From: Brachionus manjavacas
Lineage: Eukaryota; Rotifera; Eurotatoria; Ploima; Brachionidae
Assembly (NCBI GenBank): GCA_019054805.1
Contig: JAHQIY010000008.1
Coordinates: forward strand, 1,907,501-1,971,500
Direction: 5' to 3'
DNA length: 64,000 nt
Numbering within the stretch: position 1 is the stretch's first letter; each line of letters opens with the position of its first letter. This document shows, piece after piece, positions 1-56,762 of this stretch. Made by a program: the position numbers and the translations under genes. The notes under the pieces were generated by a model that was not told where the DNA came from, made no database searches, and saw nothing but the letters and a program-made list of their open reading frames with translations.

Positions 1-22
1 AACTTATTACAAGAGAAGATGA
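1..22 (+). CDS. 3' end of a Gly/Tyr-rich secreted peptide gene (partial)
   Basis: The first 22 bases encode Thr-Tyr-Tyr-Lys-Arg-Arg-stop, the C-terminus of the GY peptide found complete at 7280, 14022, 20920, 38372, 41826, 52532 and 56427. The following 3' flank matches the flank of the 7280, 14022 and 20920 copies, so this is an eighth copy cut by the window edge. Only the tail is visible, so whether the rest is intact cannot be judged. Confidence 0.85.
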
Positions 23-430
23 ACTATTTAAATCTCGCACAGATTAGATTAGTTTTTAATTTTTTTGTCAGCTTTTATTTGGTTTAATAATAAAATTTTA
101 ATGAAACATTTTTTGGTTTCAATTTTATTAAAAAAAAAGTCAAAATATTCACAGCGTCAATTTTCAATAAATCGAGAAAAGTTAAATTCAATCCGATTGA
201 ATTTATTTGACAATATATTTTTCCATTTTACCTTTCACAGTAATAAAGGATATAATATAGCTTATTCTAATAAAACGTTAAAACTGTTTTGAAGTAAATT
301 AAACAAAATTTTAAGAGCTTCTTATTCAAACATTACTTAACAATAACACCTTTAAATCCTTTTTAAAAAACCAAGAATAAATCAAAAGCTAATAAAAAGC
401 ATCCTAAAATAAATAAGTAAAAATTAATTC
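23..430 (+). repeat. 3' flank of the GY gene, 'type A' family
   Basis: This stretch is nearly identical to 7616-8030, 14358-14770 and 21256-21670. It begins with the GY 3' UTR, including an AATAAA signal shortly after the stop, and continues as non-coding AT-rich DNA. Copies 38372, 41826, 52532 and 56427 carry a different 3' flank that diverges within about ten bases of the stop. The apparent 75-codon reading frame inside it is low-complexity and not supported. 431-931 holds nothing recognisable. Confidence 0.8.
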
Positions 431-931
431 AATTAATTCCTGAAGCTTAAAAGATATAAGCATTAAAAATTAGATATAATCTGTTACATAAAAAAAGATA
501 AAGTATTTTTTTTAATTTTTATTAGAGATTTTATCAGGCTTGCCTTTTTATTTAATTTTTTATTTTTAACTGTCTGAACACTTTTTTCCTTCAATTAATA
601 AATTTAAAAAAATCCCCTTTGAGATTCCATTTTAAGTTTTTTTTTCTAATCTTCCGATAAATAAAAAAATTACCTAATTGTTTGAGGTAGCTAAGGGCAT
701 TGTTGACAATCATAGACATCCTAATTAAAAAAATAAAATTAAAATAAAAAAATTTAGAAATTTTTCGTTAAAACCGAAGAGATAATCAAACCCTTGAGTA
801 TTTTCAGCAAAAAGAAAAATAATTTTTTAAACAAATTTATTTATTCAAATTATATTAAAATTTAAATAAACCATCATTTAACATAACAAGTCCAAAATTA
901 ACTTAAATAAAAAAACTAAAGCTCTAAAATT

Positions 932-3900
932 TTATTTTTTCTTGGTGTTTTTTTTCGATGTTTCGGACACTGATTTACTAGATAAATTTCGGCGTTCATT
1001 TTTAGAGCATCCATTCGGACTCATCAAATGCTCTTTCCAATTTTCTTCTCCCAGACCAATGTTTAAATGACACAATGGACACTTATTGGTATTTTTTTCG
1101 AATGGAATACATTTTTTAAGTTTGAAATGGAGATCATTCTCTTGCCCAATGTTAGTGTTTACCGCTTCGCTGCACCGTGGACACTCTTTATAATTATTTT
1201 TGAATTGACATTCTGTTAATAAGTGTTCATTTTGAGTTGCCACTTCTATCACTTGTTTGCAATTAGTACATTGCTTTAGCATTGGACACGACTTCCAAAA
1301 ATGCATTTCAAAACCTTGTTTGGCAAATTTTTCATTCACATCTCCACAAAACATGCAAGTATTGTCTTGACCATATTCGGACTCGTCGATCATACTAGTC
1401 GGTGTTTTACGATCCAGGCTAGCATTTTGATTCGGAGTCTTTGAGCGGTTTTTTGTTGGGGTTCTTCGACCAGGTCGAGGTGTGTGCGAGCCCATATGGT
1501 CACTCTAAAAAATAAAAAATTTAAAATTGTTAATTTTAAAGTTTATTTATTTTTTTAGCAAAGCTTAAAAAAAGATTTTTTTAAATAAAATTTTTGATGA
1601 AGGTAGCAGATAGCCGATTAAAAAGGATCTTAAAATTCGGAATGAACATTGCAAAAAAAATCATTAATGATTATCAACTTCAAATAAAATTTTCTAATTT
1701 AAATTTTTTATAATGAAATAACTAAAATAAAAAAAATTAAATTTCATACCAGATTATAAACTAATTAATTTTTTAGTAGTCCGTTTTTTAATAATTTGGA
1801 TCAAATTTTATTTTTGGAAAATTAGAATATTTTTTAGATGTTAATAGCTGATTCTAAAGATTTGTTAGTTAAGATAGTTTATTTTTTGAAAATTTATTCG
1901 ATTTTTAATGTATTAATTTTTTATAAAATAATTTAGAAATATTTTTTCATATATTTAATTTTTGAAGTTTATTTTAAACATAAATGATGGCGGCTTGAGG
2001 AACCAAAAAGATCACTTTGACTTGTTGGTTTTTCTACAATAACACTAATTGCACTTATTCAATTATCCATTATTCTTTAGTTAATCAACATTATTTATTA
2101 AATAATATAGTTCAAATTTAGGTGCTTCCAAAGGATAAATTTTGATATGAGCTCTACTTATCCATATTAAACAAAATAAATTCTTCGAATAAACCTTCTT
2201 ACTTGAGTTTCAAATAAAATTTTTGATTAAAAATATTTTGTGAATAGTCTTAATAATAAAAATTAAAAAAAATTAATAAATTAAAAGAATACATTTGTTT
2301 ATTACTGATATTATAATTATGTTTATTGGCTTTACTCGACTTTTCTTAAGACTGAAAAGAATTTATTTGCTTTTCAATCCATTATGAAAAAGATCATAAG
2401 CAAGTAATTAGCTAATGAAGGAAAAATTCTTTTTAATTTAAAAATTTGTTAAATTGCTACAAAATTTTCAGCCAAAAAATTTCATCATTTTTAAAAGGTT
2501 CAAAGAAAAATTTAATCTCAGTTAAGGGTTTATCATTACTTGAAGGCTGATGAATAGTAAATTTTGGAAGCACCTTTATTTTTGCTTTTTTTATTGATTA
2601 TACAATGTTTTATTCCTTAAAATAATTCCGAGAAATCAATAAGTTTAAAGCATTGTATATCTAATTGCATTGTAAAATTTTAATACAAAAATTACAATTT
2701 AAAAATTAAAATAGTTTTTGATATTTTGTCTGATGGAAAAATGATGGGTGTTCACATTAAAATATAAATGTTATTTTTTTTTAATTTTAATTTTTTTAAT
2801 TAAATGTTATTTTTAATTTATTGATTAGTTTGAGGTTCTCGAAAAATGTGATTTTTTGATTATAGAATAAAAATTGGTGACCAAATTGACTAAAATTACA
2901 AATATTTACTAGACTATAACAGTTAAAAAAATTCAAAAATCTAGTCAATTAAAATTAATTTTAATAATTTTTAAACTATTTTAGTACAATAACTACAGTT
3001 CAAAAAGAAAAACGTTTTATTTTTTTTCTAATTTTGTAAGTCCTAAACTGTTGTAAAAAAATTTACGATAGTCTTTAGACTTAATTTACATTAGGAAAAC
3101 AATCATCGACTTCAAATGGTTTGGAAAGTCCAGCTGGCCGCACTATGCGAGATAATTTAGCAATCGACAGACAACTTGCAAGAAACTGTGGTATCCGGCA
3201 TAATTTCTTTACCAATAGAACAGCAGAATACTGGAACAAACTTGGTATAAAGTGAATGAAATAAATTATTGTCAGTGAATGAAATTAAATTGCATGTTTT
3301 TGCAGAAACTAAATTAGGGTGGCACAAAGTTTGTGTCAGTTGATACATTTTGCAGGACAATTTTTAGGCTCAAAGAGAAAAGCTATTTCATTTAAAAAAT
3401 TTTTTTTGTTCTCTTTATTCCAATATTTACAATGCCCTTTTGTTTAGAGGAAATAAAAATGGTACATGGTTCAACTTTTAAAAATTATGAAAAACAGGGA
3501 TGATTTGGACGAAATAAATCCTTTTCAATTAATCAACGATCAAGTCTGATTTTATAAAATCAATAAAAAAACATAGTAGTAAAATATTTTTTCTTCAATT
3601 GTACATAAACAAGATTTTACCCGTTGCTCTGCTGCCGGAATAATAAAAATTAAATAAACGAGAAATTATTTTTGATTATTTAATTTTTTAACTAAATATT
3701 TTATTTATCATATTGAAAAATTCTTATTATAAATTTATTTTAAAAAAAAATTCATATGTATTGACAAAATAATTAAATAAATATTTCTATACAGTATTTC
3801 ACAAAAAGTTAGAATCAAACTTGTTTTACATTTGATTGTATTTTTGTTCGCTATTTCGTTAACTGGGCTATTTCTCGTTCAGTCTTTGTCTGATCTTTCA

Positions 3901-6900: not shown

Positions 6901-9400
6901 AGGATTAATAACCCAGAAAAAAACAATATGTATGAGAAATTAAAAATAAAATTGAAAACCAGTGAATTATTCGCAAATTGCGAATATTAATATATAGGTG
7001 AAGGCTGACAAACCAGAAAAAAAATATGTCTCTGACTTAAATATTTAAAATGGATGAGAAATCAAAAATAAAATTGAAAACCAGTGAATTAAATATATAA
7101 AAAATTGAAACTAAAAAGTTCAAAACCTATTTTTAGATAATAAAATAGAAAATGAAAGTGGATCAAAAATATTTGGTATAAATAACCAAGATATTTTACC
7201 AAGATAATCATTCAAATTAAAATAATTCAATTAAATAATTAAAAATATTCAATTAAATTTTCTAATCTAATTCTTAAAAATGACTTCAAAATTTACATTG
7301 GCATTTTTGGTTGTTCTCTTGTCAAACACAGCTGTGCTGAGTACTTCCCTTGGTGAAAAACTTCAATCAACTGGTCTTAAATCCGAATCAAACAATTTGC
7401 AGTCTTCGTCAGGAAATCTTCAAGGAGCATTTGGATACGGTGGTGGCTATGGAGTGTATGATTATGGTTATGGCTATCCAAGCTACGGATATGGTTTGTA
7501 TGACTATGGAATAGGTTACGGTGTTTCTGGATATGGTGGTGGATATGGTTACACATATCCAAGCTATGGATATGGATACGGTTATGGCTATCCAACTTAT
7601 TACAAGAGAAGATGAACTATTTAAATCTCGCACAGATTAGATTAGTTTTTAATTTTTTTTTGTCAGCTTTTATTTGGTTTAATAATAAAATTTTAATGAA
7701 ACATTTTTTGGTTTCAATTTTATTAAAAAAAAGTCAAAATATTCATAGCGTCAATTTTCAGTAAATCGAGAAAAGTTAAATTCAATCCGATTGAATTTAT
7801 TTGACAATATATTTTTCCATTTTACCTTTCACAGTAATAAAGGATATAATATAGCTTCTTCTAATAAAACGTTAAAACTGTTTTGAAGTAAATTAAACAA
7901 AATTTTAAGAGCTTCTTATTCAAACATTACTTAACAATAACACCTTTAAATTCTTTTTAAAAAACCAAGAATAAATAAAAAGCTAATAAAAAGCATCCTA
8001 AAATAAATAAGTAAAAATTAATTCAATTAATTCTTAATTTTTATAATTTAAAAAAAAACTTTAAAACTTTAAATACGCTAGACAATTTTTTCATGTTTAA
8101 TTACATTTTTAATAATTCAAACCTTTATTTAATAAATTTGTTTGATTTTGCCATATTTATTTGAAAATTTAAAAATTTAAGCTGTCAAGAAAATAAACCT
8201 TTTAATCCCAATAGAGAAAATGATAGATTTTTAAATATTTTTAACAAATAGAGGTTCCATGTAAAAGCTTATAATAAGAAAAATAACAAAAATCTTACAT
8301 CAATGAACTCGAGTAGATTATTTGCTTGCAATTGTCGATAAGTTTCTTTCCGGTATTCTTGTATTTGTTGCTTTTTTATTTTCGCTTTTTCGTAATCTTC
8401 TTCTTCAATAGCTTGACGTTTTTCGATATCGTAGCGAGCTAAACGCTCGCCGATCTTTTTTAATTCTAAAATAGCCAATTTAAGCCTCTTGGCTTCGTCA
8501 TATCGTTCAGCTAGGTGACACAAAATTTATTTATTACAAGAAAAAATAGAGAAAACTAATGCCTACTTAAAACGCAATCTGTTTTTTTTTTATCCAATTT
8601 TCGAATTATTTGGCTTATTTCGGCATCTTGGTACATTGCAAATGCCAAATCATCCAGTGGTGAAATGTAGTCAGCTCGCTTGATAGCAGCCAGAACAGTA
8701 GGGTCCGCGTCGTTGTTCTTTAGCATTTCTTGGTTAATCTCGTCATCCAAATCGATTCCGATCACGTTTATAGCAATAATACCAACCTTGGGAAATCAGA
8801 TATTTTTTTTTATTTTTTTTAATAAAGGTACCTGGTTGTAGACATTGAGTCGGTTTAGGAAATTTTTATGAAGAACTAGCTTTAGGAAAAGGCCCTCGGC
8901 ATCTACATGAACAGATTTTAGTTCACGTGCTTTGAGATCAGTTTTTTCGTTAGATGATAATTCAACATATCTTAAGAAAAAAGAAGGAAATTATTTTGGA
9001 GAAAAAAGTCAGTGGAGGTTTACCCAAGTCGAGTGTATTTTGCGGAGTCAAAAGAACTCTCGTGGTCATCAGTCTCAGGACTGTCGCCAATGTAAAACTC
9101 AACTTTAGATGCAATCAAATATTGATGAGATAATATTTGCACTTTTTTAAGAACAATTTTTTTATTAAATTGTATTATTAAGTCTATAGGGTATAGACAA
9201 TATCTATGATTAAGGTGTAAAAATTATTGACTCATTTATCTTTTAGAAAGAAAATACCTTTGTGAAGCCCATCCGTGCACTAAAGGTCCGTGCTTGTCAG
9301 AGTCTAAGTCGCTGGCGGGAAATTTTTCATCTTCACTAGTTACATGCACAACTTTAAATTCGATTTTTTTAGGCGGCATGTATTCTTTTTTAAACTTCAT
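932..9400 (-). CDS. CEP104: CEP104 centrosomal/ciliary tip protein, nine exons
   Basis: CEP104 sits at the distal centriole and ciliary tip, where it binds tubulin and microtubule plus ends. Exons, 5' to 3' on the minus strand: 9400-9258, 9203-9024, 8970-8832, 8786-8567, 8510-8299, 6037-5942, 5854-4868, 4814-4686, 1504-932. All junctions are GT-AG, phases agree, and the sum is 2679 bases (892 aa; human about 925). The N-terminal jelly-roll domain is about residues 8-165. A coiled coil covers about 205-295, following the family motif ADYISPLDDLAF. The TOG domain is about 440-690. The C-terminal Cys/His zinc-finger array is about 752-868 and starts CMFCGD. The ATG at 9400 is the most upstream; the in-frame ATG at 9379 (MPPKK) aligns better with the usual family start. 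Intron 5 (2.3 kb) contains an antisense GY gene and intron 8 (3.2 kb) contains transposon relics. No SxIP motif is visible in the C-terminal tail. Family very sure; the exon 5/6 join is the least certain. Confidence 0.93.
3100..3260 (+). mobile_element. LINE 3'-end relic (C-terminus of ORF2)
   Basis: The plus frame reads a Cys-Gly-Ile-Arg-His stretch followed by NFFTNRTAEYWNKLG. This is the conserved C-terminal motif of CR1/Jockey-like LINE proteins, seen again as NFFTNRTASDWNALD in the minus-strand LINE near 49.3 kb. It is followed by stops. It is a 5'-truncated, decayed insertion inside the CEP104 intron. Confidence 0.6.
3792..4267. mobile_element. Tc1/mariner internal-deletion derivative with terminal inverted repeats
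   Basis: The ends CAGTATTTCACAAAAAGTTA (left) and the reverse complement of the right end, CAGTATGTCACAAAAACTTA, form an inverted repeat of about 30 bp. It is flanked by TA on both sides (3790-3791, 4268-4269), the Tc1/mariner target duplication. The 476-bp element is far too short for a full transposase gene but keeps its start (see 3856-3952). Confidence 0.8.
3856..3952 (-). pseudogene. Tc1-like transposase N-terminal fragment (helix-turn-helix)
   Basis: From ATG at 3952 the minus strand reads MGKNKITDQQRWQIVGLLKD and onward to EREIAQLTK before a TAG stop. This matches the N-terminal DNA-binding helix-turn-helix typical of Tc1 transposases. The catalytic core is absent; the reading frame ends within the 476-bp element. 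It shows that the surrounding MITE derives from an autonomous Tc1-like element. Confidence 0.65.
6885..7095. repeat. Short direct repeat upstream of GY gene
   Basis: A segment of about 45 bases (pattern GAGAAATYAAAAATAAAATT followed by GAAAACCAGTGAATTA) occurs at about 6931-6971 and again at 7051-7091. It lies just 5' of the GY promoter in CEP104 intron 5. Confidence 0.55.
7177..7184 (+). promoter_or_regulatory. TATA box of the GY gene at 7280
   Basis: TATAAATA lies 96 bases before the ATG in a block conserved in all complete GY copies (TTGGTATAAATAACCAAG, then TTACCAAGATAATCATTC). Conservation of this block when more distal flanks differ supports a promoter. Confidence 0.65.
7280..7615 (+). 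CDS. Gly/Tyr-rich secreted peptide, copy 1
   Basis: Single-exon gene, 111 aa. Residues 1-21 form a signal peptide (basic Lys4, hydrophobic LAFLVVLL, small residues before the likely cleavage near 21). Residues 22-48 are a Ser/Gln/Leu-rich linker. Residues 49-108 are almost only Gly and Tyr with Asp, Pro and Ser, in loose repeats such as YGYGYPSYGYG. The end is Tyr-Tyr-Lys-Arg-Arg. Composition resembles cuticle, eggshell or adhesive proteins and the YGGYG-type peptides of nematodes; no homologue is recognised and function is not assigned. The gene lies antisense inside CEP104 intron 5. This copy alone has Asn16 where the others have Ser. An AATAAA follows about 70 bases after the stop. Confidence 0.85.
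   Translation: MTSKFTLAFLVVLLSNTAVLSTSLGEKLQSTGLKSESNNLQSSSGNLQGAFGYGGGYGVYDYGYGYPSYGYGLYDYGIGYGVSGYGGGYGYTYPSYGYGYGYGYPTYYKRR
7616..8125 (+). repeat. Type A 3' flank of GY copy 1
   Basis: Matches 14358-14866 and 21256-21764 nearly base for base, then diverges where the other two copies join a LINE relic. The shared block shows that DNA well beyond the GY transcript was copied along with the gene. Confidence 0.75.
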
Positions 9401-13814: not shown

Positions 13815-13921
13815 AAATTAAATAAAAATAAAATTGGACATCCAAATAAAAATTTTAATTGAAACAAGAACAAATTTGAAAATTATATTTAGATAAGAAA
13901 ATTTGAAACAAAAAAATTAGG

Positions 13922-13929
13922 TATAAATA
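13922..13929 (+). promoter_or_regulatory. TATA box of the GY gene at 14022
   Basis: TATAAATA, 93 bases before the ATG, within the conserved block (AGGTATAAATAGTCAAG). The sequence upstream differs from copy 7280, so the promoter core is conserved beyond flank identity. Confidence 0.65.
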
Positions 13930-14021
13930 GTCAAGAAATTTTACCAAGATAATCATTCAAATTAAAATAATTGAATCAAAATAATTAAAATTAAATTAAT
14001 TTTCTATTGTAATTCTTAAAA

Positions 14022-14357
14022 ATGACCTCAAAATTTACATTGGCATTTTTAGTTGTTCTCTTGTCAAGCACAGCTGTGCTGAGTACTTCCCTTGGTGAAA
14101 AACTTCAATCAACTGGTCTTAAATCCGAATCAAACAATTTGCAGTCTTCGTCAGGAAATCTTCAAGGAGCATTTGGATACGGTGGTGGCTATGGAGTGTA
14201 TGATTATGGTTATGGCTATCCAAGCTACGGATATGGTTTGTATGACTATGGAATAGGTTACGGTGTTTCTGGATATGGTGGTGGATATGGTTACACATAT
14301 CCTAGCTATGGATATGGATACGGTTATGGCTATCCAACTTATTACAAGAGAAGATGA
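14022..14357 (+). CDS. Gly/Tyr-rich secreted peptide, copy 2
   Basis: 111-aa single-exon frame, same architecture as 7280-7615: signal peptide 1-21, linker 22-48, Gly/Tyr-rich 49-108, Lys-Arg-Arg end. The protein appears identical to copy 20920 and to the copies at 41826, 52532 and 56427. It lies at the start of the first 6.9-kb unit. The minus-strand frame over the same bases is a shadow produced by the repetitive codons. Confidence 0.85.
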   Translation: MTSKFTLAFLVVLLSSTAVLSTSLGEKLQSTGLKSESNNLQSSSGNLQGAFGYGGGYGVYDYGYGYPSYGYGLYDYGIGYGVSGYGGGYGYTYPSYGYGYGYGYPTYYKRR

Positions 14358-14865
14358 ACTATTTAAATCTCGCACAGATTAGATTAGTTTTTAATTTTTT
14401 TTTTGTCAGCTTTTATTTGGTTTAATAATAAAATTTTAATGAAACATTTTTTGGTTTCAATTTTATTAAAAAAAGTCAAAATATTCACAGCGTCAATTTT
14501 CAATAAATCGAGAAAAGTTAAATTCAATCCGATTGAATTTATTTGACAATATATTTTTCCATTTTACCTTTCACAGTAATAAAGGATATAATAAAGCTTA
14601 TTCTAATAAAACGTTAAATCTGTTTTGAAGTAAATTAAACAAAATTTTAAGAGCTTCTTATTCAAACATTACTTAACAATAACACCTTTAAATTCTTTTT
14701 AAAAAACCAAGAATAAATAAAAAGCTAATAAAAAGCATCCTAAAATAAATAAGTAAAAATTAATTCAATTAATTCTTAATTTTTATAATTTAAAAAAAAA
14801 CTTTAAAACTTTAAATACGCTAGACAATTTTTTCATGTTTAATTACATTTTTAATAATTCAAACC

Positions 14866-15010
14866 AAAGAAGAGAGTATTCATTATTTGTTTTGTCTTTT
14901 CTTGGTATATCGTTAATAAAAATACTAAATAGGAGGGCTAATTACTGAGCCTTGTGGTACTCCGGCTTTGATTGGGAAATCAAGTAGGGAAGAATATGCT
15001 TTATATACAA
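14866..15010 (-). mobile_element. LINE reverse transcriptase fragment (frameshifted)
   Basis: On the minus strand [10 protein letters not shown] is followed, after a 2-base loss, by the frame of [12 protein letters not shown]. This is the reverse transcriptase motif 'GVPQGSxxxPLLFxxxINDLP'. The homologous fragment in unit 2 (21764-21914) keeps the two bases and reads through, so the frameshift arose after the duplication. Confidence 0.65.
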
Positions 15011-15639
15011 TTAATTAATGATTCTGAATGAGATAATATCAATTTTATCCTTGATTTGTTCATAAAATGTTAAACTGCAAAAAAATAGACCAAATCAACT
15101 CAAATTAAATGATTCTTCAAAGATATTGGACTCAAATTCACTGAAAATTCATTATGAATTCATTGAGAAATCATTGAAAATTGAAATTGTTGAAATCAAA
15201 TTTTTTCGCTAATAATTTACCAGGAAAATCAGAAATTAATTAATATAGAAGATCATTATCATTAAAAAGGAATATCTTCCAAAAGCATCCGATCTCTTAA
15301 GAAATTTTAAGAAACTTTTCTTGATATTTTTTTTATTAGCAGATAAATAACTTAATTATTTGAATATTAGTCACTTATTATCAACAAAAAAAAAATTCCA
15401 AAATAATTCTTTTCTTTTTATTTTAAATTTTATTCTTTTTAATTTTACTTTATTTTTGAATTTTTTTGTTTATCTGAAGGAGATTTAGCATGTCAGAGAT
15501 AAATAAATAAATTAATAAATAATGCTGAGCAATATCAATGGATGAAGTTGTAAGAGATGGAATTTTTTCGGACTAATTATGTCTTGTTTTGTGAAAATCT
15601 GGAATATCAATTGCCGAATGATAATTTAATTTTTTTATT

Positions 15640-16117
15640 TATTTGTTTTCTGTACCGAGCTAGAGTGTCCTGGGAATAAATTATAAAAAAAATTGAAATA
15701 AAAATAAAGTAAATAAGCTTAAAAAAAACGTTAAGAAAGTTAAAAAAACATATATTGAAATAGGTTGTTACTTGTTACACATGTTTACATAGTTGAGGCT
15801 TCAAGGAAAAAAAGAGGAAATAGTAAGCTAGCTATTACACAATGGAGTTGGGTATTCAATATATCTCGATTCGAAACCTTCTTTGTATTCCTCCACCAGT
15901 CTTACGATCAATGGAATAGAATGACTCAGTACTGTCCCAACATATCTCTCACTCAACTCGAAAAGCCGATTCGAGACTGTTAGTAATTTAAGTTTATTAT
16001 AAGCCTCATGATGCACCATGTTGGAGGGAGTGTCATATTTAACTAGAGGATATATCTGACTGCTGAATTCTGAATTGCTTGTAGTTTTTTGATATTATTT
16101 TCTGAAAATGAATTCAA
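15640..16117 (-). mobile_element. LINE-A 3' relic, inverted-repeat arm
   Basis: The minus strand encodes YNKLKLLTVSNRLFELSERY and EEYKEGFESRYIEYPTPLC, then the 3' UTR and the tail with CTGTACCGAGCTAGAG at 15653. It is the inverted partner of 19142-19680. Another isolated tail of the same family is at about 16300-16345 and a diverged one at about 15470-15520. Confidence 0.7.
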
Positions 16118-16880
16118 CTGCGCAATTTAATTGCAGAGTTTTTGCAGGGCCTTATCTAATATTTAGCATATTTTTTGCATTAGTTAGAATTTTTCAGAGA
16201 GATTTAATCAAATACCATTCAAAAGTTATTAAAAAATACTTTTTGATCTGATTTTAAGCCCTAAAGATTCATTTAAATTTCTTAGTGTTTACTTTTATTT
16301 ATTTGTAAATCTGTACCGAGCTAATTCTCCTTCAGAATAAAAATATATACAATAAAAAAAATAAAAAAAAATAAAATTAAAAATAAAAATAAAGTTAAAA
16401 TAAAAAAAAGGATTAAATAATTAAAAAAAATTAGTGAATAATTTATTTATTTTTTCATCTTCAAAGACTTGAAAATACAGAAGTGAATACAGCATCAAAG
16501 GAGAAATTAATGCATTTTCATAAAGTCATTTTTTAAACTCCTTTCTTTCCTTCAGAATGAAATATTTAATTGTTTGAACGAACTATGTCTTTTAATTATA
16601 AATCCAATATTTAATCACAAAATTAATTTAACTTTGTAAAATTTACAATTTATTTTTAAATGAAGATTTTTTAAACTTACATATAAAATAAATACAATCA
16701 ATCGAAATAAATACGATTTTTTATAACATTAGTAAGACTTTTCTTTTACTTTAAAACAAAATTATATCAATTATTAGTTAAAAAAATAAAAAATTTTGTG
16801 TAAATCCACGAGCGACCTAGACAAAAATAGTATCAAGGTTTGTCTTTTTTGAACATTACTTTCTTTCGATATTAGATATA

Positions 16881-17664
16881 CAGTGATGATTTGATCCTAG
16901 TGTTTTTCGAATTTACGTAAATTTTACGTAAATTTACGAATATGCGTAAAATTGGTAAAAATGTATAAAAATTTGTAAAAAAATTAAAAATTCAACCAAA
17001 TTTTTTAGAACAATTTGCGAAATTTGTCCCTAATGGAGAAACTTTTGAAAAAGCTTTTGAGAAGGCGAGCAATTCATTAAGAAAGAATCATTCGGTTTTT
17101 AAAGCTAAAAAATTATAGATCAATTCATTATTAAATTTCAAAAATAAAAATAAAAATTTTTTGAATCAATTTTTTTATTCAAATTACTAAATTAATAAGG
17201 AAAGAAAAGCTAATATTCAAAAATCTATTCAAAATATTCAATTCACATATTTTTTAATGTTAACTTTGAAATATTTATTAATTCATATTAGAGATAAAGA
17301 AGAGATTGAAAGTTTAATGAAAAATAATGAAATATAATGAATAATAGTTTAAAAGTTTTATTAAATAATTTGATTGGATTTTCTGATTTTTTTTAGAAAT
17401 TTTTACTGAAATTTACCTTTTCAAAGTACGGTCTTTACGTAAATTTACGTAAAAATCTGTAAATTTTTTTTTTCTCAAAATTTTTTTGATTTTGTTAAAT
17501 TTACTAAAAAAACATAAAAATGGCCTAAAAAACGGCATTTTTTTGGCATTTTCCTTTTTACAAGTTTTTTCGTAAATTTTCGTAAATTAACATTTTTTTA
17601 CATGTGTAATTTTACGAAAATTTACGTAAAATTTGGTAAAAAAACTATTATCAAATCATCACTG
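16881..17664. mobile_element. 784-bp MITE with 15-bp perfect TIRs
   Basis: CAGTGATGATTTGAT at the left and its exact reverse complement ATCAAATCATCACTG at the right, flanked by TA (16879-16880, 17665-17666). The interior begins and ends with repeats of the palindromic word ACGTAAATTTACGT and similar. No protein frame is seen. Tc1/mariner-type non-autonomous element; an identical copy is in unit 2. Confidence 0.82.
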
Positions 17665-17666
17665 TA

Positions 17667-18675
17667 CCTAAAATTATTTTTGTTTTGAATTTAAAAAAAA
17701 AAATTATAAACTAAAATTTCTTAATAAAATCAATACTTTTGGGTTGAGTGGGAAGAGGCAACAAAAATTCTAGTGAAACACCTAATTCAAAACTTCGACA
17801 ATTATTTTGACTTTTTCATTAGTAAAGAACCATCATATTTAACAAAATTTTACACTACTCTTCAGAATAAAAATGAATAAGGATGTGGAATATGAAAATT
17901 ATTTTTAAACTTAATAATTTTGCCTTAAATTTGTTTTAAAGTTTATTTCTTTAAGATTTAACAGTTTTCAAATACCTTTTTACAGAAACAAAAATAAAGA
18001 TTTTTTTATTAGGCTAAAATTCAAACCAACTAACAGCCTTACCAAACTGAACAAACTTATTAAAAAAAAACATCGTTTGATTTAAAATTTACTTTGAAAA
18101 TTATAAAATGCTAAATAACCTGATTTTATTTGAGAGATATTTTATTAAGTTAAGCCTTGAATTACAGCGAATAACCTCATGTTTCAGTTTGTTGGTTTCT
18201 ATTCAGATCGTCAATACATAGAAAAAGAAAGATACTAGTTTTATTCTTTTCTCTTATTCAAGTCATTTGATTGACAGTAAGATTATCCCATCTTTTTAAT
18301 CCCAAGTAAGATTATCCCATCTTTTTAATATCAGTAATTGGCAGGTTATTTTTCTATTTAACTTTTTTGAAATTTTGAAATTACGTTGTTTCATTAAAAC
18401 TCAATACTTAAGCATGTTAAAATTTGAAATGTAATTACGCAATTATTTTTAGAAATGTAAAATAGAATAATAAACTTGCCAATTATTATTTTATTTATTT
18501 GGGTTGCTAAAACTTCATGTTCCACATTTCTTTACAGTTTACTTACTTACCGCTGGAAATTATATTAACCAAAAAAGATAATTGACAACTAATTTCTTAT
18601 TAATAAAAAACTAAAATCTCATTTTATTAACTTTAATTTTATTTTTAATTTATTTTTTTTTATTTTTTTTTAACT
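17667..18675. other. Non-coding part of the duplication unit
   Basis: AT-rich DNA without genes. A direct repeat of 25-28 bases containing AGTAAGATTATCCCATCTTT occurs twice at about 18278-18330. Confidence 0.5.
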
Positions 18676-18731
18676 TATTCTGAATGAGCTTTAGCTCGGT
18701 ACAGAAAACAAATAAATTAATTAATAAATAA
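18676..18731 (+). repeat. LINE-A 3' tail
   Basis: TTATTCTGAATGAGCTTTAGCTCGGTACAGAAAACAAATAAAT with a GAGC-TTTA-GCTC hairpin, then AAATA repeats. Same tail as at the ends of the longer LINE-A relics. Confidence 0.65.
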
Positions 18732-19680
18732 AATGATTCATTCACTTAATTTTAAATTGAATAATGTCTGAATCCAGCAAAAATACTGTTGAATTATTAT
18801 CAATCAATTATCACATTGCAAAACTAATCGCACCCAATAGCGATCTTAAATGGGTATCCTTATAGATGACAAGATAACAATAAAAATTCAACAAGATACG
18901 TGTGTATCAATTCAAAATGTTAGCAAGTCGTGTTCAGTAGTCTTCTCTGGGTACAAAAAAGAGAGTGATAATCTAAACTTAAAATTTTATGGAATTATTG
19001 ACGAAATTAAAGAAAGCTGCAATGAAAGGCTAAATATTATTAAGGTTTTGTCAAATAAAAAATGGGGTCTTACTCAAAACACACTAGGAAATTTATATAA
19101 ATCTTAAGTCGGATCAATTTTAGACTATTTTTTTTCCTTGCTTGAATTCATTTTCAGAAAATAATATCAAAAAACTACAAGCAATTCAGAATTCAGCAGT
19201 CAGATATATCCTCTAGTTAAATATGACACTCCCTCCAACATGGTGCATCATGAGGCTTATAATAAACTTAAATTACTAACAGTCTCGAATCGGCTTTTCG
19301 AGTTGAGTGAGAGATATGTTGGGACAGTACTGAGTCATTCTATTCCATTGATCGTAAGACTGGTGGAGGAATACAAAGAAGGTTTCGAATCGAGATATAT
19401 TGAATACCCAACTCCATTGTGTAATAGCTAGCTTACTATTTCCTCTTTTTTTCCTTGAAGCCTCAACTATGTAAACATGTGTAACAAGTAACAACCTATT
19501 TCAATATATGTTTTTTTAACTTTCTTTACATTTTTTTTAAGCTTATTTACTTTATTTTGATTTTTTTTTATCTCATTTTATTTACTTTAATTTTTTTTTT
19601 TATTTTGATTTTAATTTTTTTTAATTTATTCTGAAGGAGTCCTAGCTCGGTAAAAAAACAAATAAAAAAAAATAAATATA
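18732..19680 (+). mobile_element. LINE-A 3' relic, plus orientation
   Basis: A frame from 18841 reads GILIDDKITIKIQQDTC through TLGNLYKS to a TAA at 19105-19107, where the related copy at 11.3 kb has TTA, giving LYKSLVG. After a frameshift it resumes in KLKLLTVSNRLFELSERYVG (19267-19431) and ends in the tail CTGAAGGAGTCCTAGCTCGG. 19142-19650 is inverted relative to 15650-16117. The first 195 bases recur in direct orientation at 19681-19876. Confidence 0.7.
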
Positions 19681-19876: not shown

Positions 19877-20014
19877 TTTGACTTTAAAAGGAGACCAAGT
19901 AATAAAATTGAGAGGACTACATTATTACGACCCTTTAACAAAATAGTAAAAGCAACTCAAATTTAAAAAAAAGAAGTCTATGAGAAGAATGAAAAGTGAG
20001 CTACGCAATGCTAA

Positions 20015-37201: not shown

Positions 37202-38268
37202 TTTAAGTTAATATCGAAAATACATATTATTGATTGTGTAATTTAAGAAATTATTTCATTGATTAATAACTCTAAACATTTTAAAAGAATAAAAATTAAA
37301 AAAAAAACCTTTTTATACCTTTTTTTATAAAAAATAAAATAAGACTGTTTTATATTTTTTCTTCTCAAGAGGACTCCAGAATTAATAGGTTCATCTTTTC
37401 TCTTTGACTTCATAATTATTTGAAAAAAATTAATTTACTATTATTTATTTATTTATTATAAATATTAATAATATAAATAATAATAATAATTATATAATAA
37501 TAATAATAATAATATTAATAATAAACTCCAGAATTAATAGGTTCATCTTTTCTCTTTGACTTCATAATTATTTGAAAAAAATTAATGAATAATTCAAGTT
37601 AAATAATTCAAATCTTGAAACAAACTCTAAAAAAATTAAGTTGATGTTATTGAAAATCGAAAGTTTTAAAGCTTGTAGTTATTGATTTCTTGATGTCAAA
37701 GCATTTCATAATTCTTGGATAAAAATATTCGGACGTAAGATTTTGCCATCGGTTCAATCAAGCTATTGCTGTTTCTTAAATTATATTTCAAATTTCTTGA
37801 GTCACTTTTCTTTAGTTTTACTTTTAAATTAGTGAGTTATTATAAAAAAGAAATTTTTAAGAAAGAGTAATAATTCTTTCAAATATTCTTTGCTGGAAAG
37901 AAAAAGGCCATATTTTTCTTCTAAAGAGGATCCCAGAATTAACAGTTTCATTTTATTTTAGTAAAAAAATAAAAATTATTTTTAAACTCATTTTTGTATT
38001 TAGATCAAAAAGAGACAAAAGACAAATGTCTAGAATTTTTTGACAATCTAACCTATGTTTTTAAGGAATTGACAATCTTAATATAAAAACCAATTTGAGA
38101 AAAATCAAAATTAAAATAATAATTTTTATTTAAAAATGTGGAAAGATTAAAAATAAAAATGAAAATGAATGGATTTTTATTTGAAATTGTTTAATGTGAA
38201 AATTCAAGTTCAAAGCCTATTTTTAAATAAAAAAATTAGAAAATAAAAAGTGGATCAATAATACTTGG

Positions 38269-38276
38269 TATAAATA
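38269..38276 (+). promoter_or_regulatory. TATA box of the GY gene at 38372
   Basis: TATAAATA, 96 bases before the ATG, in the block CTTGGTATAAATAACCAAG. Confidence 0.65.
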
Positions 38277-38371
38277 ACCAAGATATCTTACCAAGATAAT
38301 CATTCAAGTTAAAATAATTCAATTAAATAATTAAAAATATTCAATTAAATTATCTAATCTAATTCTTAAAA

Positions 38372-38707
38372 ATGACCTCAAAATTTACATTGGCATTTTT
38401 AGTTGTTGTCTTGTCAAGCACAGCTGTGCTGAGTACTTCCCTTGGTGAAAAACTTCAATCAACTGGTCTTAAATCCGAATCAAACATTTTGCAGTCTTCG
38501 TCAGGAAATCTTCAAGGAGCATTTGGATACGGTGGTGGCTATGGAGTGTATGATTATGGTTATGGCTATCCAAGCTACGGATATGGTTTGTATGACTATG
38601 GAATAGGTTACGGTGTTTCTGGATATGGTGGTGGATATGGTTACACATATCCTAGCTATGGATATGGATACGGTTATGGCTATCCAACTTATTACAAGAG
38701 AAGATGA
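38372..38707 (+). CDS. Gly/Tyr-rich secreted peptide, copy 4
   Basis: 111-aa single-exon frame with the family layout. It is the most divergent copy at protein level: Val13 for Leu in the signal peptide and Ile39 for Asn in the linker; the Gly/Tyr-rich part is unchanged. It lies convergent with copy 5 (41826-42161) across an SR-protein gene. The 3' flank is 'type B' (GAACACTTTAAATC after the stop). Confidence 0.85.
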   Translation: MTSKFTLAFLVVVLSSTAVLSTSLGEKLQSTGLKSESNILQSSSGNLQGAFGYGGGYGVYDYGYGYPSYGYGLYDYGIGYGVSGYGGGYGYTYPSYGYGYGYGYPTYYKRR

Positions 38708-38840
38708 ACACTTTAAATCTCGCATTTGTTTTAGATTAGTTTTTAGTTTTTTTGTCAGCTTTTATTTGGTTTTATAATAAAATTTTAATATAAGATTTTT
38801 TTTATTTTTTTGAATAAAATAGCTTCAAAAAGTAGATATT

Positions 38841-40232
38841 AAAATTTAATTATAAAATTAGCAACTCAAATAGACTTGTGCAAAAGTCGAACAAAAAGTC
38901 ATTTTATAGTCTTTTTTAAGTCAAATCTTTTTTTTTTAATTGAATTTTTGTCCGAGAAAAAGTCATTTCAAAGTCCTTGACATAAATGTGCCCGCCACGA
39001 TTACTACATAACGCCAAAAAATTCATGTGAACGCGATTATAACTGCATGGAACGCTAAAAATTTAAAGATTCTTAATTAATTAATTTAAAATTAATTTTT
39101 GATTTTGAAGTAATTTTAAATTACTTCGTCATCATGAATTTTAACCCAATTGTTTCAAAAAGCGAAAAAGACTGGCAATTGTGTCGACTTTTTAATAGCA
39201 ATTAAAAGTAAAAATTCCTTAATTAAATAGAAACTGGTAAATTTGAGACTGAACTTTTTTTAGATCGAATGGACGAATAAATCAAATAATTTTTTTGAAA
39301 AATTTTTAATACTTATACATTTTAGGTTGATAAAAAACATAATATGTTAAATCAAAAATACAGGGTCAACCAAAAAGAACGCTTTCTTCAGATTTATTAA
39401 ACTTTGGAAGAAAAAAGTCTTTCCAATTAATTTTTTCATACCAAAATTTACTTAAAATTTTTTTTGAATAAATAACATAAGTTAAACTGTAAAATTGGTA
39501 ATTTTTAATTATTAAAATTTCATTTTATCAAATTAAACAATTCAACTATAAATTGAAATATTAAAAATCATTTAGCAACATATTGAATGCCATCTTTTTT
39601 GTCTAATTAAATGACTTATTCTTTAAGCTTATCTTAATATCTCCATGTGAAACAATTTTTTTTTTTGAATTGAAATTACCTTAAAATTTGGTAAATTACC
39701 TTTAAAAAATGGCGAAACTTAACTTAACAAAAAGTGTTTTCAACTTTAATCATCAAGAATCTTGGTTGAATTTTCTAAAATGATAAAATATGTATTATTT
39801 AAATATTCTTTTAGTTTGAAAATAGCAATTAAAATAATTTTTTTAATTTTTTTTTCATTAGAATTTTTTTTTAAATATCCTTAATTTTCCGAGATATTTT
39901 GTTTTATTTATTAACTTTTCTACCAAGTTTTTATTTTATTCAAAATTTTTGAACAATAAAAAGAATTTAAAGATGATTTTACATTAAAATAAGATCAAAT
40001 GGTCTCAAAATTGACCATATCTTCATTAACTAATTGAAATTAGCAATTAATCATCTAAACATTTAATTTAATTTAGTAAATAGTTTAATTTTTTGGATTA
40101 TTTAAAATTAATAGATTGTATTTGGGTTTTGCTTTAATCTAAAAGATTAAGCTCAAAATTTATTTTAATGTTAACAAACAAACATTAAATATTTTTGTAA
40201 TGTATTTACAAAAAAGTTTGAAAAAATATGTT
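38841..40232. other. Spacer between GY copy 4 and the SR-protein gene
   Basis: Non-coding. 38841-38925 resembles the inner end of inverted duplication 2. At 39359 TACAGGGTCAACCAAAAAG looks like the start of a mariner-type TIR without a partner. A GC-richer patch at 38985-39055 is unexplained. Confidence 0.4.
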
Positions 40233-40849: not shown

Positions 40850-41679
40850 TCTGTATACCTAATGAATTTTTTATTAATTTAAAATAATTTTTTTTTTAAT
40901 TTAGTGTCTGTTTTTATACAGTAAACGAGAGAAAAATCAAAATGGAGCACGCTCTTTATATGTTTATTTTTTTGTAGATGTATTAAAAAATTTTTTTCTT
41001 TTTATTTAGCATTTTATGAGCGATTTTTGAAATTATATTCAATTCAGACTAAATAAGTACTTCGTCAAAGCTTCATTTTTATTTGGCTTTTTTTGCAAAA
41101 ATTATTTTATTTTGTTATTTGTTTCCTTATTTGTTTAAAATATCTTATAAAGTTATTTTTTCTCAATACTTAAATGCCTCAAATTTTAAACCGTATCCCA
41201 GAGATTTCATATTTTTAAATTTTTATTTGTACATAAATATCAATTTTATGATTTTTGACACCTAAACAATAGAGACAATTAATGAAGACAATTTAATTTT
41301 GAAGGATTCTAATAATTCTTTGGTGCCTATTTTTTTTTTTTAAATTTTAACAATTCACAGTTGTACTAAGATCTAAGTTGTAAATAAAATTTTGCAAAAT
41401 TTTATCTTATTGATATTTTAATTCTTTTTATTTAAAATTTTTAAAAAAGATAATTTTAAAATGATCATTAAAAAAAAATAAAGTAACTAAATTTGTTCAT
41501 AAAAATTCATTTATTACGAAATAATCATTGTAAGAATAATTTTTTTAATTCTTTATTTGTTTTTTAAGATAATGAATAAGGCAAAATTTTCCATATTTTT
41601 AACAATCTTAGTTCTTCTAATAGAATAATGATTATTAATAAAATAATTTATTCAATTAAAAAATATTTAATAAAATATA
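40850..41679. other. Intergenic, 5' side of the SR-protein gene
   Basis: AT-rich; presumably contains the promoter of the minus-strand SR gene. No reliable TATA box or other signal was identified. Confidence 0.4.
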
Positions 41680-41825
41680 AATATCTACTTTTTGAAGCTT
41701 TTAAATCTTTAATTAAAAGCAAAAAACATAAAAAAAATCTTATATTAAAATTTTATTATAAAACCAAATAAAAGCTGACAAAAAAACTAAAAACTAATCT
41801 AAAACAAATGCGAGATTTAAAGTGT

Positions 41826-42161
41826 TCATCTTCTCTTGTAATAAGTTGGATAGCCATAACCGTATCCATATCCATAGCTAGGATATGTGTAACCATATCC
41901 ACCACCATATCCAGAAACACCGTAACCTATTCCATAGTCATACAAACCATATCCGTAGCTTGGATAGCCATAACCATAATCATACACTCCATAGCCACCA
42001 CCGTATCCAAATGCTCCTTGAAGATTTCCTGACGAAGACTGCAAATTGTTTGATTCGGATTTAAGACCAGTTGATTGAAGTTTTTCACCAAGGGAAGTAC
42101 TCAGCACAGCTGTGCTTGACAAGAGAACAACTAAAAATGCTAATGTAAATTTTGAAGTCAT
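41826..42161 (-). CDS. Gly/Tyr-rich secreted peptide, copy 5
   Basis: 111-aa single-exon frame; the protein equals that of copies 2, 3, 6 and 7. Silent differences include ACT for Thr2 (as in 7280 and duplication 2) where its palindrome partner at 38372 has ACC. 3' flank type B. Confidence 0.85.
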   Translation of the reverse strand: MTSKFTLAFLVVLLSSTAVLSTSLGEKLQSTGLKSESNNLQSSSGNLQGAFGYGGGYGVYDYGYGYPSYGYGLYDYGIGYGVSGYGGGYGYTYPSYGYGYGYGYPTYYKRR

Positions 42162-42258
42162 TTTTAAGAATTAGATTAGAAAATTTAATTGAATATTTTT
42201 ATAATTATTTAATTGAATTATTTTAACTTGAATGATTATCTTGGTAAGATATCTTGGT

Positions 42259-42266
42259 TATTTATA
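42259..42266 (-). promoter_or_regulatory. TATA box of the GY gene at 41826-42161
   Basis: TATAAATA on the minus strand, upstream of the ATG at 42161 at the family spacing. Confidence 0.65.
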
Positions 42267-43124
42267 CCAAGTATTATTGATCCACTTTTTATTTTCTAAT
42301 TTTTTTATTTAAAAATAGGCTTTGAACTTGAATTTTCACATTAAACAATTTCAAATAAAAATCCATTCATTTTCATTTTTATTTTTAATCTTTCTTTCAT
42401 TTTTAAATAAAAATTATTTTTTTAATTTTGATTTTTCTCAAATTGGTTTTTATATTAAGATTGTCAATTCCTTAAAAACATAGGTTAGATTGTCAAAAAA
42501 TTCTAGATATTTGTCTTTTGTCTCTTTTTGATCTAAATACAAAAATGAGTTTAAAAAAATTTTTTTAATTTTTTACTAAAATAAAATGAAACTGTTAATT
42601 CTGGGATCCTCTTTAGAAGAAAAATATGGCCTTTTTCTTTCCAGCAAAGAATATTTGAAAGAATTATTACTCTTTCTTAAAAATTTCTTTTTTATTATAA
42701 CTCACTAATTTAAAAGTAAAACTAAAGAAAAGTGACTCAAGAAATTTGAAATATAATTTAAGAAACAGCAATAGCTTGATTGAACCGATGGCAAAATCTT
42801 ACGTCCGAATATTTTTATCCAAGAATTATGAAATGCTTTGACATCAAGAAATCAATAACTACAAGCTTTACAACTTTCGATTTTCAATAACATCAACTTA
42901 ATTTTTTTAGAGTTTGTTTCAAGATTTGAATTATTTAACTTGAATTATTCATTAATTTTTTTCAAATAATTATGAAGTCAAAGAGAAAAGATGAACCTAT
43001 TAATTCTGGAGTCCTCTTGAGAAGAAAAAATATAAAACAGTCTTATTTTAATTTTTATAAAAAAAGGTATAAAAAGGTTTTTTTTTTAATTTTTATTCTT
43101 TTAAAATGTTTAAAGTTATTAATC

Positions 43125-51841: not shown

Positions 51842-52428
51842 AAAATCTGTCCCATAATTCTTTTAAAAATTGTTTCCAAAATTTCAAAAGAAATTAAAAA
51901 GTGCATTAAAAATTTAATTTTTAAAAAAGGTAAACATATAAACTATTAGATGATTTAATTTTAAGCTATTCGAAATAAAATAATGGGCTTTTTGTTTAAT
52001 TTCACTAATGACCGATAAACTTTTCAAATCGAATTGAGTTTGAATCAGTTAAATGCGAACCTTTTTCCAGGTCTTTAGTTCAAAAAATCAAATTTATCCT
52101 AGATGCAAATGTATTAAATTTTTCTTATTTTGCATAAAATCGAGAATACACTTTAACTATTATAAAAAAAAAGTTTAATTAATTAGAAGATAAAAATCTA
52201 TTAAATTTTTTGACTATCTAACCTATATTTTTAAGGAATTGACAATCTTAATTTAAATAACAATCAAAAATAATAGAATATTTTTTATTTAAAAATGGAA
52301 GATAAATTAAAAATAAAAATGAAAATGAATGGATTTTTATTTAAAATTGTTTAATGTGAAAATCAAGTTCAAAGCCTATTTTTTAAATAAAAAAATTAGA
52401 AAATAGAAGGTGGACCAAAAATATTTGG

Positions 52429-52436
52429 TATAAATA
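52429..52436 (+). promoter_or_regulatory. TATA box of the GY gene at 52532
   Basis: TATAAATA, 96 bases before the ATG, in TTTGGTATAAATAACCAAG. Confidence 0.65.
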
Positions 52437-52531
52437 ACCAAGATATTTTACCAAGATAATCATTCAAATTAAAATAATTCGATTAAATAATTAAAAATAT
52501 TCAATTAAATTTTCTAATCTAATTCTTAAAA

Positions 52532-52867
52532 ATGACTTCAAAATTTACATTGGCATTTTTAGTTGTTCTCTTGTCAAGCACAGCTGTGCTGAGTACTTCC
52601 CTTGGTGAAAAACTTCAATCAACTGGTCTTAAATCCGAATCAAACAATTTGCAGTCTTCGTCAGGAAATCTTCAAGGAGCATTTGGATACGGTGGTGGCT
52701 ATGGAGTATATGATTATGGTTATGGCTATCCAAGCTACGGATATGGTTTGTATGACTATGGAATAGGTTACGGTGTTTCTGGATATGGTGGTGGATACGG
52801 TTACACATATCCTAGCTATGGATATGGATACGGTTATGGCTATCCAACTTATTACAAGAGAAGATGA
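52532..52867 (+). CDS. Gly/Tyr-rich secreted peptide, copy 6
   Basis: 111-aa single-exon frame; protein equal to copies 2, 3, 5 and 7. It shares two silent private variants (GGAGTATAT and GGATACGGTT) only with copy 7 in the opposite arm. 3' flank type B. Convergent with copy 7 across a LINE-filled spacer. Confidence 0.85.
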   Translation: MTSKFTLAFLVVLLSSTAVLSTSLGEKLQSTGLKSESNNLQSSSGNLQGAFGYGGGYGVYDYGYGYPSYGYGLYDYGIGYGVSGYGGGYGYTYPSYGYGYGYGYPTYYKRR

Positions 52868-53339
52868 ACACTTTAAATCTTGCATTTGTTTTAGATTAGT
52901 TTTTAGTTTTTTTGTCAGCTTTTATTTGGTTTTATAATAAAATTTTAATATAAGATTTTTTTTATTTTTTTTGCTTTTAATTAAAGATTTAAAAGCTTCA
53001 AAAAGTAGATATTTATATTTTAATTATAAAATTAGCAACTCAAATTAGACTTGTGCAAAAGTCGAATAAAAAGTCATTTTATAGTCTTTTCTAAGTCGAG
53101 TCTTTTTATCTGACTTGAAATTTTATTTTAACTTAAGCGTTTCGCAACAAGTTCGTTTGGTACGGTCGTTTAGGTTCGGTTCGTCTGGTTGGTACGGTAC
53201 CGTTTATGGCACGGTTTGGCGCCATGCTTCGGTATTAGGTCTCGATCTTAGGGGTTCATTACGATTTTCTAATACCCACTGAATTTGCTTCAGTACTGGA
53301 AAATAATGGTTCAAACCTAAATCGAAACAAATATTGTTA

Positions 53340-55792: not shown

Positions 55793-56202
55793 ATAAGAAG
55801 AATGCCATCAAATTAAAGAATGTATTATTAAACCAATAGAGCATAGAAGTGGTTCTATTGGAATTTGGTGCTATTTGGTTTATTATGGTCTAGGATTTTT
55901 TTCTATATTTGACTGAAGGCTTAATTATCAGAGATATGTTGATATTTTATGATATAACTAACTATGATTATAACTAACAATAGATTTGCTAAGAGAAGGT
56001 ATGGCTTTCAGATTCCAACAAGACAACGGCTCTTGCCATTGAGACAGATAAGTGAATAAGCTTTATTCAGGATAGATGCTCATTTTTTATTAAAAGAGCC
56101 AAGGCTTAATTTTTAAAATTAATAAAAAAAATCTAAGTCAAGTCATAACTTTGACTTAAATTTTTGTGACTTAGACTTAAAACTGTGACTTAAAAACGTC
56201 TG
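55793..56202. other. Spacer between LINE-B and right arm
   Basis: Follows the LINE-B 3' end (TACTACTACTATTACTTCTAG). Non-coding, with repeats of the word GACTTAAA/AAGTCAAGTCA just before the arm. Confidence 0.4.
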
Positions 56203-56426
56203 GAAAAGACTATAAAATGACTTTTTATTCGACTTTTGCACAAGTCTAATTTGAGTTGCTAATTTTATAATTAAAATATAAATATCTACTTTTTGAAGCT
56301 TTTAAATCTTTAATTAAAAGCAAAAAAAATAAAAAAAATCTTATATTAAAATTTTATTATAAAACCAAATAAAAGCTGACAAAAAAACTAAAAACTAATC
56401 TAAAACAAATGCAAGATTTAAAGTGT

Positions 56427-56762
56427 TCATCTTCTCTTGTAATAAGTTGGATAGCCATAACCGTATCCATATCCATAGCTAGGATATGTGTAACCGTATC
56501 CACCACCATATCCAGAAACACCGTAACCTATTCCATAGTCATACAAACCATATCCGTAGCTTGGATAGCCATAACCATAATCATATACTCCATAGCCACC
56601 ACCGTATCCAAATGCTCCTTGAAGATTTCCTGACGAAGACTGCAAATTGTTTGATTCGGATTTAAGACCAGTTGATTGAAGTTTTTCACCAAGGGAAGTA
56701 CTCAGCACAGCTGTGCTTGACAAGAGAACAACTAAAAATGCCAATGTAAATTTTGAAGTCAT
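56427..56762 (-). CDS. Gly/Tyr-rich secreted peptide, copy 7
   Basis: 111-aa single-exon frame on the minus strand, same protein as copy 6 and sharing its private silent variants. Signal peptide, linker, Gly/Tyr-rich part and Lys-Arg-Arg end intact; 3' flank type B faces the spacer. Confidence 0.85.
   Translation of the reverse strand: MTSKFTLAFLVVLLSSTAVLSTSLGEKLQSTGLKSESNNLQSSSGNLQGAFGYGGGYGVYDYGYGYPSYGYGLYDYGIGYGVSGYGGGYGYTYPSYGYGYGYGYPTYYKRR

What the first reader, a model, noticed from the sequence alone, without database searches (positions are those of the whole stretch)
1..56762. A small Gly/Tyr-rich secreted-peptide gene amplified and dispersed eight times in 64 kb
Seven complete 111-aa copies and one tail are nearly identical in coding sequence (at most two residue differences). 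They sit in an intron of CEP104, in a tandem duplication beside ZFR, and in two inverted duplications. Each complete copy keeps its own TATAAATA block and AATAAA, so copying was at DNA level, not by retroposition. A low-complexity Gly/Tyr peptide at this dosage suggests selection for high expression of a structural or defence peptide. That last step is inference. I do not know a described family with this sequence.
Basis: partly seen in the sequence, partly recalled or inferred. Interest (0 to 1): 0.75.

Follow-up and report, generated by a model that had tools for sequence, protein, structure and literature searches.

The report
Eight near-identical Gly/Tyr-rich secreted-peptide genes
A chromosome, probably of a small animal, carries a cluster of eight almost identical genes for a small secreted protein rich in glycine and tyrosine, perhaps a building block of a hardened coat or glue, and the copies seem to be kept alike by copying over one another.

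Summary
Eight complete, intact 111-aa copies lie in 57 kb of one contig (C8:1907187-1964262; the 'tail' at window 1-22 is a whole gene cut by the window edge). One divergent, frameshifted paralogue lies on another contig; the genome search scored 11 candidates and gave no further match. Copying was at DNA level: TATA block and AATAAA are kept in 8 of 8, and homology ends differ from pair to pair, so no transposon unit is seen. The new result is a mosaic. Coding sequences differ by 0-6 of 336 bases among all pairs, while adjoining 5' and 3' flanks differ by up to 20% and 13%, and c1/c2 join one 5' class to the other 3' class. This fits gene conversion or ectopic exchange over the coding sequence, though not every pair shows it. 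The product has a signal-like start, then no Cys, 24% Tyr, 28% Gly and about +1 net charge; it matches no Pfam family over cut-off and no PDB entry. Best reading: a dosage-amplified structural protein meant for tyrosine cross-linking. Function, expression, copy number by depth and organism are not shown.

The parts
1..22 (+). c1: last 22 bases (with stop) of a complete copy; ATG at window -313 (C8:1907187)
7280..7615 (+). c2: 111-aa Gly/Tyr gene (S16N), on the strand opposite to CEP104, probably in one of its introns
14022..14357 (+). c3: 111-aa Gly/Tyr gene in tandem unit 1
20920..21255 (+). c4: 111-aa Gly/Tyr gene in tandem unit 2; CDS identical to c3
38372..38707 (+). c5: 111-aa Gly/Tyr gene (L13V, N39I)
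41826..42161 (-). c6: 111-aa Gly/Tyr gene, inverted partner of c5
52532..52867 (+). c7: 111-aa Gly/Tyr gene
56427..56762 (-). c8: 111-aa Gly/Tyr gene, inverted partner of c7; CDS identical to c7
7177..7184 (+). TATAAATA of c2 (-103); in the other copies at -100 to -105 of the ATG
7684..7689 (+). AATAAA of c2, 68 bases after the stop codon; in the other copies at 66-69
6966..8033 (+). segment shared by c2 and c1 (-314 to +753 of the ATG, 98.97%)
13815..20709 (+). tandem unit 1, begins 207 bp before the c3 ATG
20713..27614 (+). tandem unit 2 (99.48% to unit 1), begins 207 bp before the c4 ATG
37525..38852 (+). left arm of inverted pair c5/c6 (97.3% over 1345 aligned bases)
41668..43012 (-). right arm of inverted pair c5/c6
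51842..53091 (+). left arm of inverted pair c7/c8 (99.68% over 1251 aligned bases)
56203..57452 (-). right arm of inverted pair c7/c8

Best explanation
A single-exon gene with its own TATA block and polyadenylation signal, encoding a small secreted Gly/Tyr-rich protein, has been amplified in place to eight copies by several separate segmental duplications, one tandem and at least two inverted. The copies are homogenised by gene conversion or ectopic exchange over the coding sequence (seen as a statistical pattern, not observed directly). The likely product (inferred) is a disordered structural precursor whose many Tyr residues are cross-linked outside the cell to dityrosine or DOPA-quinone, as in eggshell, cuticle or adhesive. 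The likely selected effect (inferred) is dosage: many equal copies, all intact.
For: 8 of 8 copies are intact, and a profile of the core finds no further remnant in the 84 kb read. Synonymous differences against flank differences, Fisher, uncorrected: c3-c5 0/79 against 23/117 in the 5' flank (P=4e-6) and 11/92 in the 3' flank (P=9.5e-4); c1-c3 1/79 against 18/117 (P=8.6e-4); c1-c7 2/79 against 12/92 in the 3' flank (P=0.013). Flank classes disagree: the proximal 5' flank joins c1,c2 with c5-c8, the 3' flank joins c1,c2 with c3,c4. Among 10 pairs of five representative copies (c2, c4, c8 left out), the longest agreeing run beats shuffles at p below 0.02 in 5, best c1-c3 (p=4e-4) and c1-c7 (p=0.0014). 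Synonymous sites can change: 11.3 of 49.8 differ between c3 and the C2 paralogue, dN/dS 0.32 over 72 codons, and the two length changes in its repeat region are 42 and 6 bases, in frame. Peptide: hydrophobic stretch at about 5-20; of the 90 residues after residue 21, 25 Gly, 22 Tyr, no Cys; 14 of these 22 Tyr are followed by Gly. AlphaFold pLDDT is below 50 over 51-111 (only 4 sequences).
Against: No expression, proteome, read-depth or population data. Of the 9 between-group pairs tested, both flanks are significantly more different than synonymous sites in only 2 (c3-c5, c3-c6), one flank in 5, neither in 2 (c5-c7, c6-c7); c3-c7 misses at the 3' side (P=0.055). Run-length shuffles give nothing in 5 of 10 pairs, c3-c5 and c3-c7 among them. 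The tests use related copies, are uncorrected, and count inherited changes many times. The 6.9-kb tandem pair could be two haplotypes assembled in line. Cross-linking enzymes could not be looked up. The signal peptide was judged by hydropathy only.
Confidence: 0.6

Rival explanations
1. Secreted antimicrobial or defence peptide cluster, like the Gly/Tyr-rich nlp and cnc (caenacin) peptides of C. elegans.
For: Small, apparently secreted, Gly/Tyr-rich, multicopy cluster; PMC2453101 describes glycine- and tyrosine-rich AMPs, many in small clusters (passages).
Against: About +1 net charge after the signal stretch, pI 7.7; 3 variable residues over 8 copies, whereas the nlp-29 cluster is reported to diversify under natural selection.
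Confidence: 0.15
2. The copies are simply very recent, and the flank differences come from fast-changing neighbouring DNA; no gene conversion is needed.
For: Within the four pairs CDS and flanks do not differ significantly in divergence, and c5-c7 and c6-c7 show no difference either.
Against: Between other groups the homologous 5' (-120 to -1) and 3' (336-429) flanks differ by up to 20% and 13% with 0-3 synonymous changes in about 79 sites, and flank classes are discordant in c1/c2.
Confidence: 0.15
3. Synonymous sites are frozen by selection on RNA, codons or DNA of the coding sequence rather than by conversion.
For: Constraint on the protein, dN/dS 0.32 against the C2 paralogue.
Against: 11.3 of 49.8 synonymous sites differ from the C2 paralogue, against 0-3 of about 79 in the 13 cluster pairs tested. 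The C2 copy is frameshifted, so part of its change may have come after loss of function.
Confidence: 0.07
4. Assembly artefact: fewer real copies, duplicated by haplotype or fold-back errors.
For: The tandem pair is 99.48% alike, the c7/c8 arms 99.68%; depth cannot be checked.
Against: The groups differ in their flanks, c2 probably lies among CEP104 exons, and sequence beyond the homology ends differs between the partners of each pair.
Confidence: 0.08
5. Cargo of a mobile element or retrocopies.
For: Reverse-transcriptase fragments lie between copies.
Against: Homology ends differ from pair to pair; promoter and 207 to about 850 bp upstream are copied.
Confidence: 0.03

Closest known systems
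Trematode eggshell precursors P14 / P19 / P48 (PMC2758302, passages read)
   Same: Tyr-rich, Tyr often followed by Gly (here 14 of 22). That P14 genes are small, intronless and multicopy is recalled, not read.
   Different: No sequence link tested; probably another animal group; expression in egg-forming cells unknown.
C. elegans nlp / cnc (caenacin) Gly/Tyr peptides (PMC2453101, passages read)
   Same: Gly/Tyr-rich peptides in a local cluster.
   Different: The nlp-29 cluster is reported to diversify under selection; these copies are nearly identical.
Nematode epicuticlins and arthropod GYR/YLP cuticle proteins (PMC9612446, passages read)
   Same: Signal peptide, disorder, Tyr motifs proposed as dityrosine sites.
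   Different: No GYR match in the Pfam scan; no repeats of 49-51 residues.
Plant glycine-rich protein family PF07172 (GRP)
   Same: Weak match over residues 1-90, E=0.69.
   Different: 11 bits against a cut-off of 30; most likely composition. TAP35_44 (PF07265) is similar, 10.9 bits against 25.

Membership tests
Trematode eggshell protein P14 | Tyr-rich with Tyr often followed by Gly | tested here: met
   14 of 22 Tyr followed by Gly; feature as stated in PMC2758302. A composition feature only.
Trematode eggshell protein P14 | sequence homology to P14 | not tested
   no P14 sequence was fetched
Trematode eggshell protein P14 | expression in vitelline cells and oxidation to DOPA in the shell | not testable with these tools
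   no transcript or proteome data
GYR cuticle proteins / epicuticlins (PF02756) | GYR motif | tested here: not met
   not among the 2 matches listed up to E 5; HMMER's filters drop most matches above about 0.1
nlp/cnc antimicrobial peptides | antimicrobial activity, infection-induced expression | not testable with these tools
   no expression data or assay
nlp/cnc antimicrobial peptides | diversification of copies | tested here: not met
   3 variable residues over 8 copies
Plant GRP family PF07172 | score over curated cut-off | tested here: not met
   11 bits against 30
Mobile element cargo | common termini in all copies | tested here: not met
   homology ends differ from pair to pair
Processed retrocopy | promoter lost | tested here: not met
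   TATA block and upstream DNA kept in 8 of 8
Gene family under gene conversion | synonymous sites more alike than homologous flanks | tested here: met
   at one flank or both in 7 of 9 between-group pairs, at neither in 2 (uncorrected)
Gene family under gene conversion | discordant grouping of the two flanks | tested here: met
   c1/c2 group with c5-c8 at the 5' side and with c3/c4 at the 3' side

The most novel reading that the evidence does not exclude
A lineage-restricted protein of Tyr-cross-linked extracellular material, made by an eight-copy cluster in which inverted gene pairs and a tandem unit serve as mutual templates, so that conversion over the coding sequence keeps one product at high dose while the flank and promoter classes drift apart and may drive different timing or tissues.
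Probability: 0.25. Interest if true: 0.5.

Novelty: new member of a known kind. Interest (0 to 1): 0.35.

Why it matters
It is a compact case of concerted evolution in which exchange tracts can be mapped, because flanks diverged while the coding part did not. If the product is a tanned shell, cuticle or glue protein, it is a candidate material protein without a Pfam family and a marker for the gland or stage that makes it.

Tried and rejected
Transposon cargo and retroposition were rejected. Pfam and PDB searches of the peptide gave nothing above a cut-off. Rfam and tRNA scans of the window were empty. Structure prediction gave mean pLDDT 46 from four sequences, so no fold search was made. Naming the organism failed. 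Of six 3-kb contig ends I counted a few telomere-like words only: TTAGGG occurs 8 times in L019 and 0 times in the other five, in what looks like satellite. Size (114 Mb), 27% GC in the window and satellite made me think of a monogonont rotifer (Brachionus), a guess from memory that no call tests; papers on that genus (listings and passages) did not settle it. Paper searches for rotifer Gly/Tyr proteins (listings only, 12 of 39 shown), for gene-converted Gly/Tyr families (0 papers) and for primers (passage in 38) gave nothing usable. Wanted but not answered: other GYGYGY-coding loci, COX1 and 18S for identity, tyrosinase genes, and 40 kb on either side beyond the 10 kb read.

Full report
Observation. 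Seven complete 111-aa ORFs lie in the window. A protein search of the window's own genome (114,169,980 bases, 61 contigs) scored 11 of 11 candidates and gave nine matches at E up to 0.001: eight complete copies at C8:1907187-1964262, none with an internal stop, and one at C2:6158815-6159036 with 80% identity over residues 22-111 (the tool calls counts of families lower bounds). The first-stage 'tail' is copy c1, whose ATG lies at window -313. A profile of the core gives exactly eight hits at E up to 0.01 in the 84 kb read. Amino-acid variation is three sites in all: S16N in c2, L13V and N39I in c5.

Neighbourhood. CEP104 is on the minus strand (zinc-finger ORF 932-1495, TOG ORF 4847-5854). ORFs at 8272-8526 and 8559-8795 look like upstream CEP104 exons; one has a UVR motif at 20.9 bits against a cut-off of 21.5, the other no match. 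So c2 probably, not certainly, sits in a CEP104 intron, on the other strand. A ZFR-like zf-met ORF is at 28110-29150 and a DZF match at 32098-32247. Reverse-transcriptase matches lie at 49828-50574 and 54747-55256.

How the copies arose. Pairs c1/c2, c3/c4, c5/c6 and c7/c8 share long but different stretches: -314 to +753; about 6.9 kb starting at -207; about -850 to +490; -690 to +559. Between groups the shared stretch also varies: about -350 to +490-590 for c5,c6 with c7,c8; about -220 to +750-845 for c1,c2 with c3,c4; and otherwise from between -248 and -133 to about +430-460. The ends I looked at show no common terminus. The TATA block and AATAAA are kept in 8 of 8, and some 50 bases from the TATA box on are largely kept in the C2 paralogue too, though TATAAATA as a word is common in this genome. 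This is segmental duplication at DNA level.

Mosaic. In an alignment of the eight copies the coding sequence differs by 0-6 of 336 bases, while proximal 5' flanks (-120 to -1) differ by up to 23/117 and 3' flanks (336-429) by up to 12/92. Of 45 polymorphic columns among 545 ungapped ones from -120 to 429, 9 are in the 336 coding columns. Two flank signals disagree: by the proximal 5' flank c1 and c2 go with c5-c8, by the 3' flank with c3 and c4. Thirteen of the 28 pairs were tested for synonymous sites against flanks. Of the nine between-group pairs, synonymous sites are more alike (P<0.05, uncorrected) than the 5' flank in four, all with c3, and than the 3' flank in five; both flanks in two, neither in c5-c7 and c6-c7. 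The four within-group pairs show no difference. Shuffled run lengths for 10 pairs of five representatives give p below 0.02 in five (c1-c3 4e-4, c1-c7 0.0014, c1-c6 0.003, c3-c6 0.013, c1-c5 0.014) and nothing in c3-c5, c3-c7, c5-c6, c5-c7 and c6-c7. The C2 paralogue shows that synonymous sites can diverge (11.3 of 49.8), with the reservation that it is frameshifted. Gene conversion or ectopic exchange over the coding sequence explains this best. Recent duplication alone suffices for the within-group pairs.

Product. Hydropathy marks a secretory-signal-like stretch at about residues 5-20 (no signal-peptide program was used). The 90 residues from 22 on hold 25 Gly and 22 Tyr, no Cys, pI 7.7; 14 of the 22 Tyr are followed by Gly. 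AlphaFold gives pLDDT below 50 for residues 51-111 with a four-row alignment, which fits disorder but is weak. There is no Pfam match over cut-off and no PDB match up to E 1. dN/dS between c3 and the C2 paralogue is 0.32 over 72 codons. That paralogue keeps the repeat region open, with length changes of 42 and 6 bases, but its ATG frame runs into a stop at codon 24, so it is probably a recent pseudogene or an assembly error.

Interpretation. Tyr-rich, Gly-spaced, Cys-free secreted proteins suit material hardened by tyrosine oxidation. PMC2758302 (passages) says that trematode eggshell precursors P14, P19 and P48 are Tyr-rich with Tyr frequently flanked by Gly on the carboxy side and are oxidised to DOPA-quinones; PMC9612446 (passages) describes disordered Tyr-motif epicuticlins and dityrosine. 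The Gly/Tyr nlp and cnc peptides of C. elegans (PMC2453101, passages) are the main rival; that cluster is reported to diversify under selection, this one is uniform, and a charge of about +1 fits less well with membrane-active peptides. I put the whole explanation at about 0.6. Membership in P14 or any other family is not claimed.

Novelty. Local amplification and concerted evolution of small secreted-protein genes is a known kind of event (general knowledge). The family itself was not found in Pfam or PDB. Three searches of an open-access paper library with rotifer terms listed nothing that describes it (listings only), but the organism is not identified and no animal protein database was at hand, so nothing can be said about orthologues.

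Noticed in passing
C2:6158815-6159036 (L017, L026:5001-5222): Single divergent paralogue with conserved TATA block, open repeat region and a frameshift in the signal-peptide part.
   Followed up: yes
window 40236-40643 and 58667-59522, minus strand: Two zinc-knuckle ORFs with Arg-rich stretches, the second next to an RRM ORF at 59244-59522; they look like two SR splicing-factor paralogues. The first lies between inverted copies c5 and c6.
   Followed up: partly
window 15678-16117, 19142-19578, 22582-23021, 26047-26482: A 440-bp segment present four times in inverted orientation (97.5-98.4%), two per tandem unit, with an 88-aa ORF that has no Pfam match.
   Followed up: partly
window 43141-44818: Nested direct (93%) and inverted (98.5%) repeats.
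   Followed up: no
window 53360-55638: ORFs that look like pieces of a non-LTR element (RVT_1 match only at 54747-55256; no match for 53360-53743, 53747-54082, 55009-55635) in the spacer between inverted copies c7 and c8.
   Followed up: partly
L018 (C1:1-3000); L019, L020, L023: Contig end made wholly of a 337-bp satellite, 8.9 copies in 3 kb; by eye related repeats at the other end of C1, the start of C2 and the end of C8, but not in L021 and L022.
   Followed up: partly
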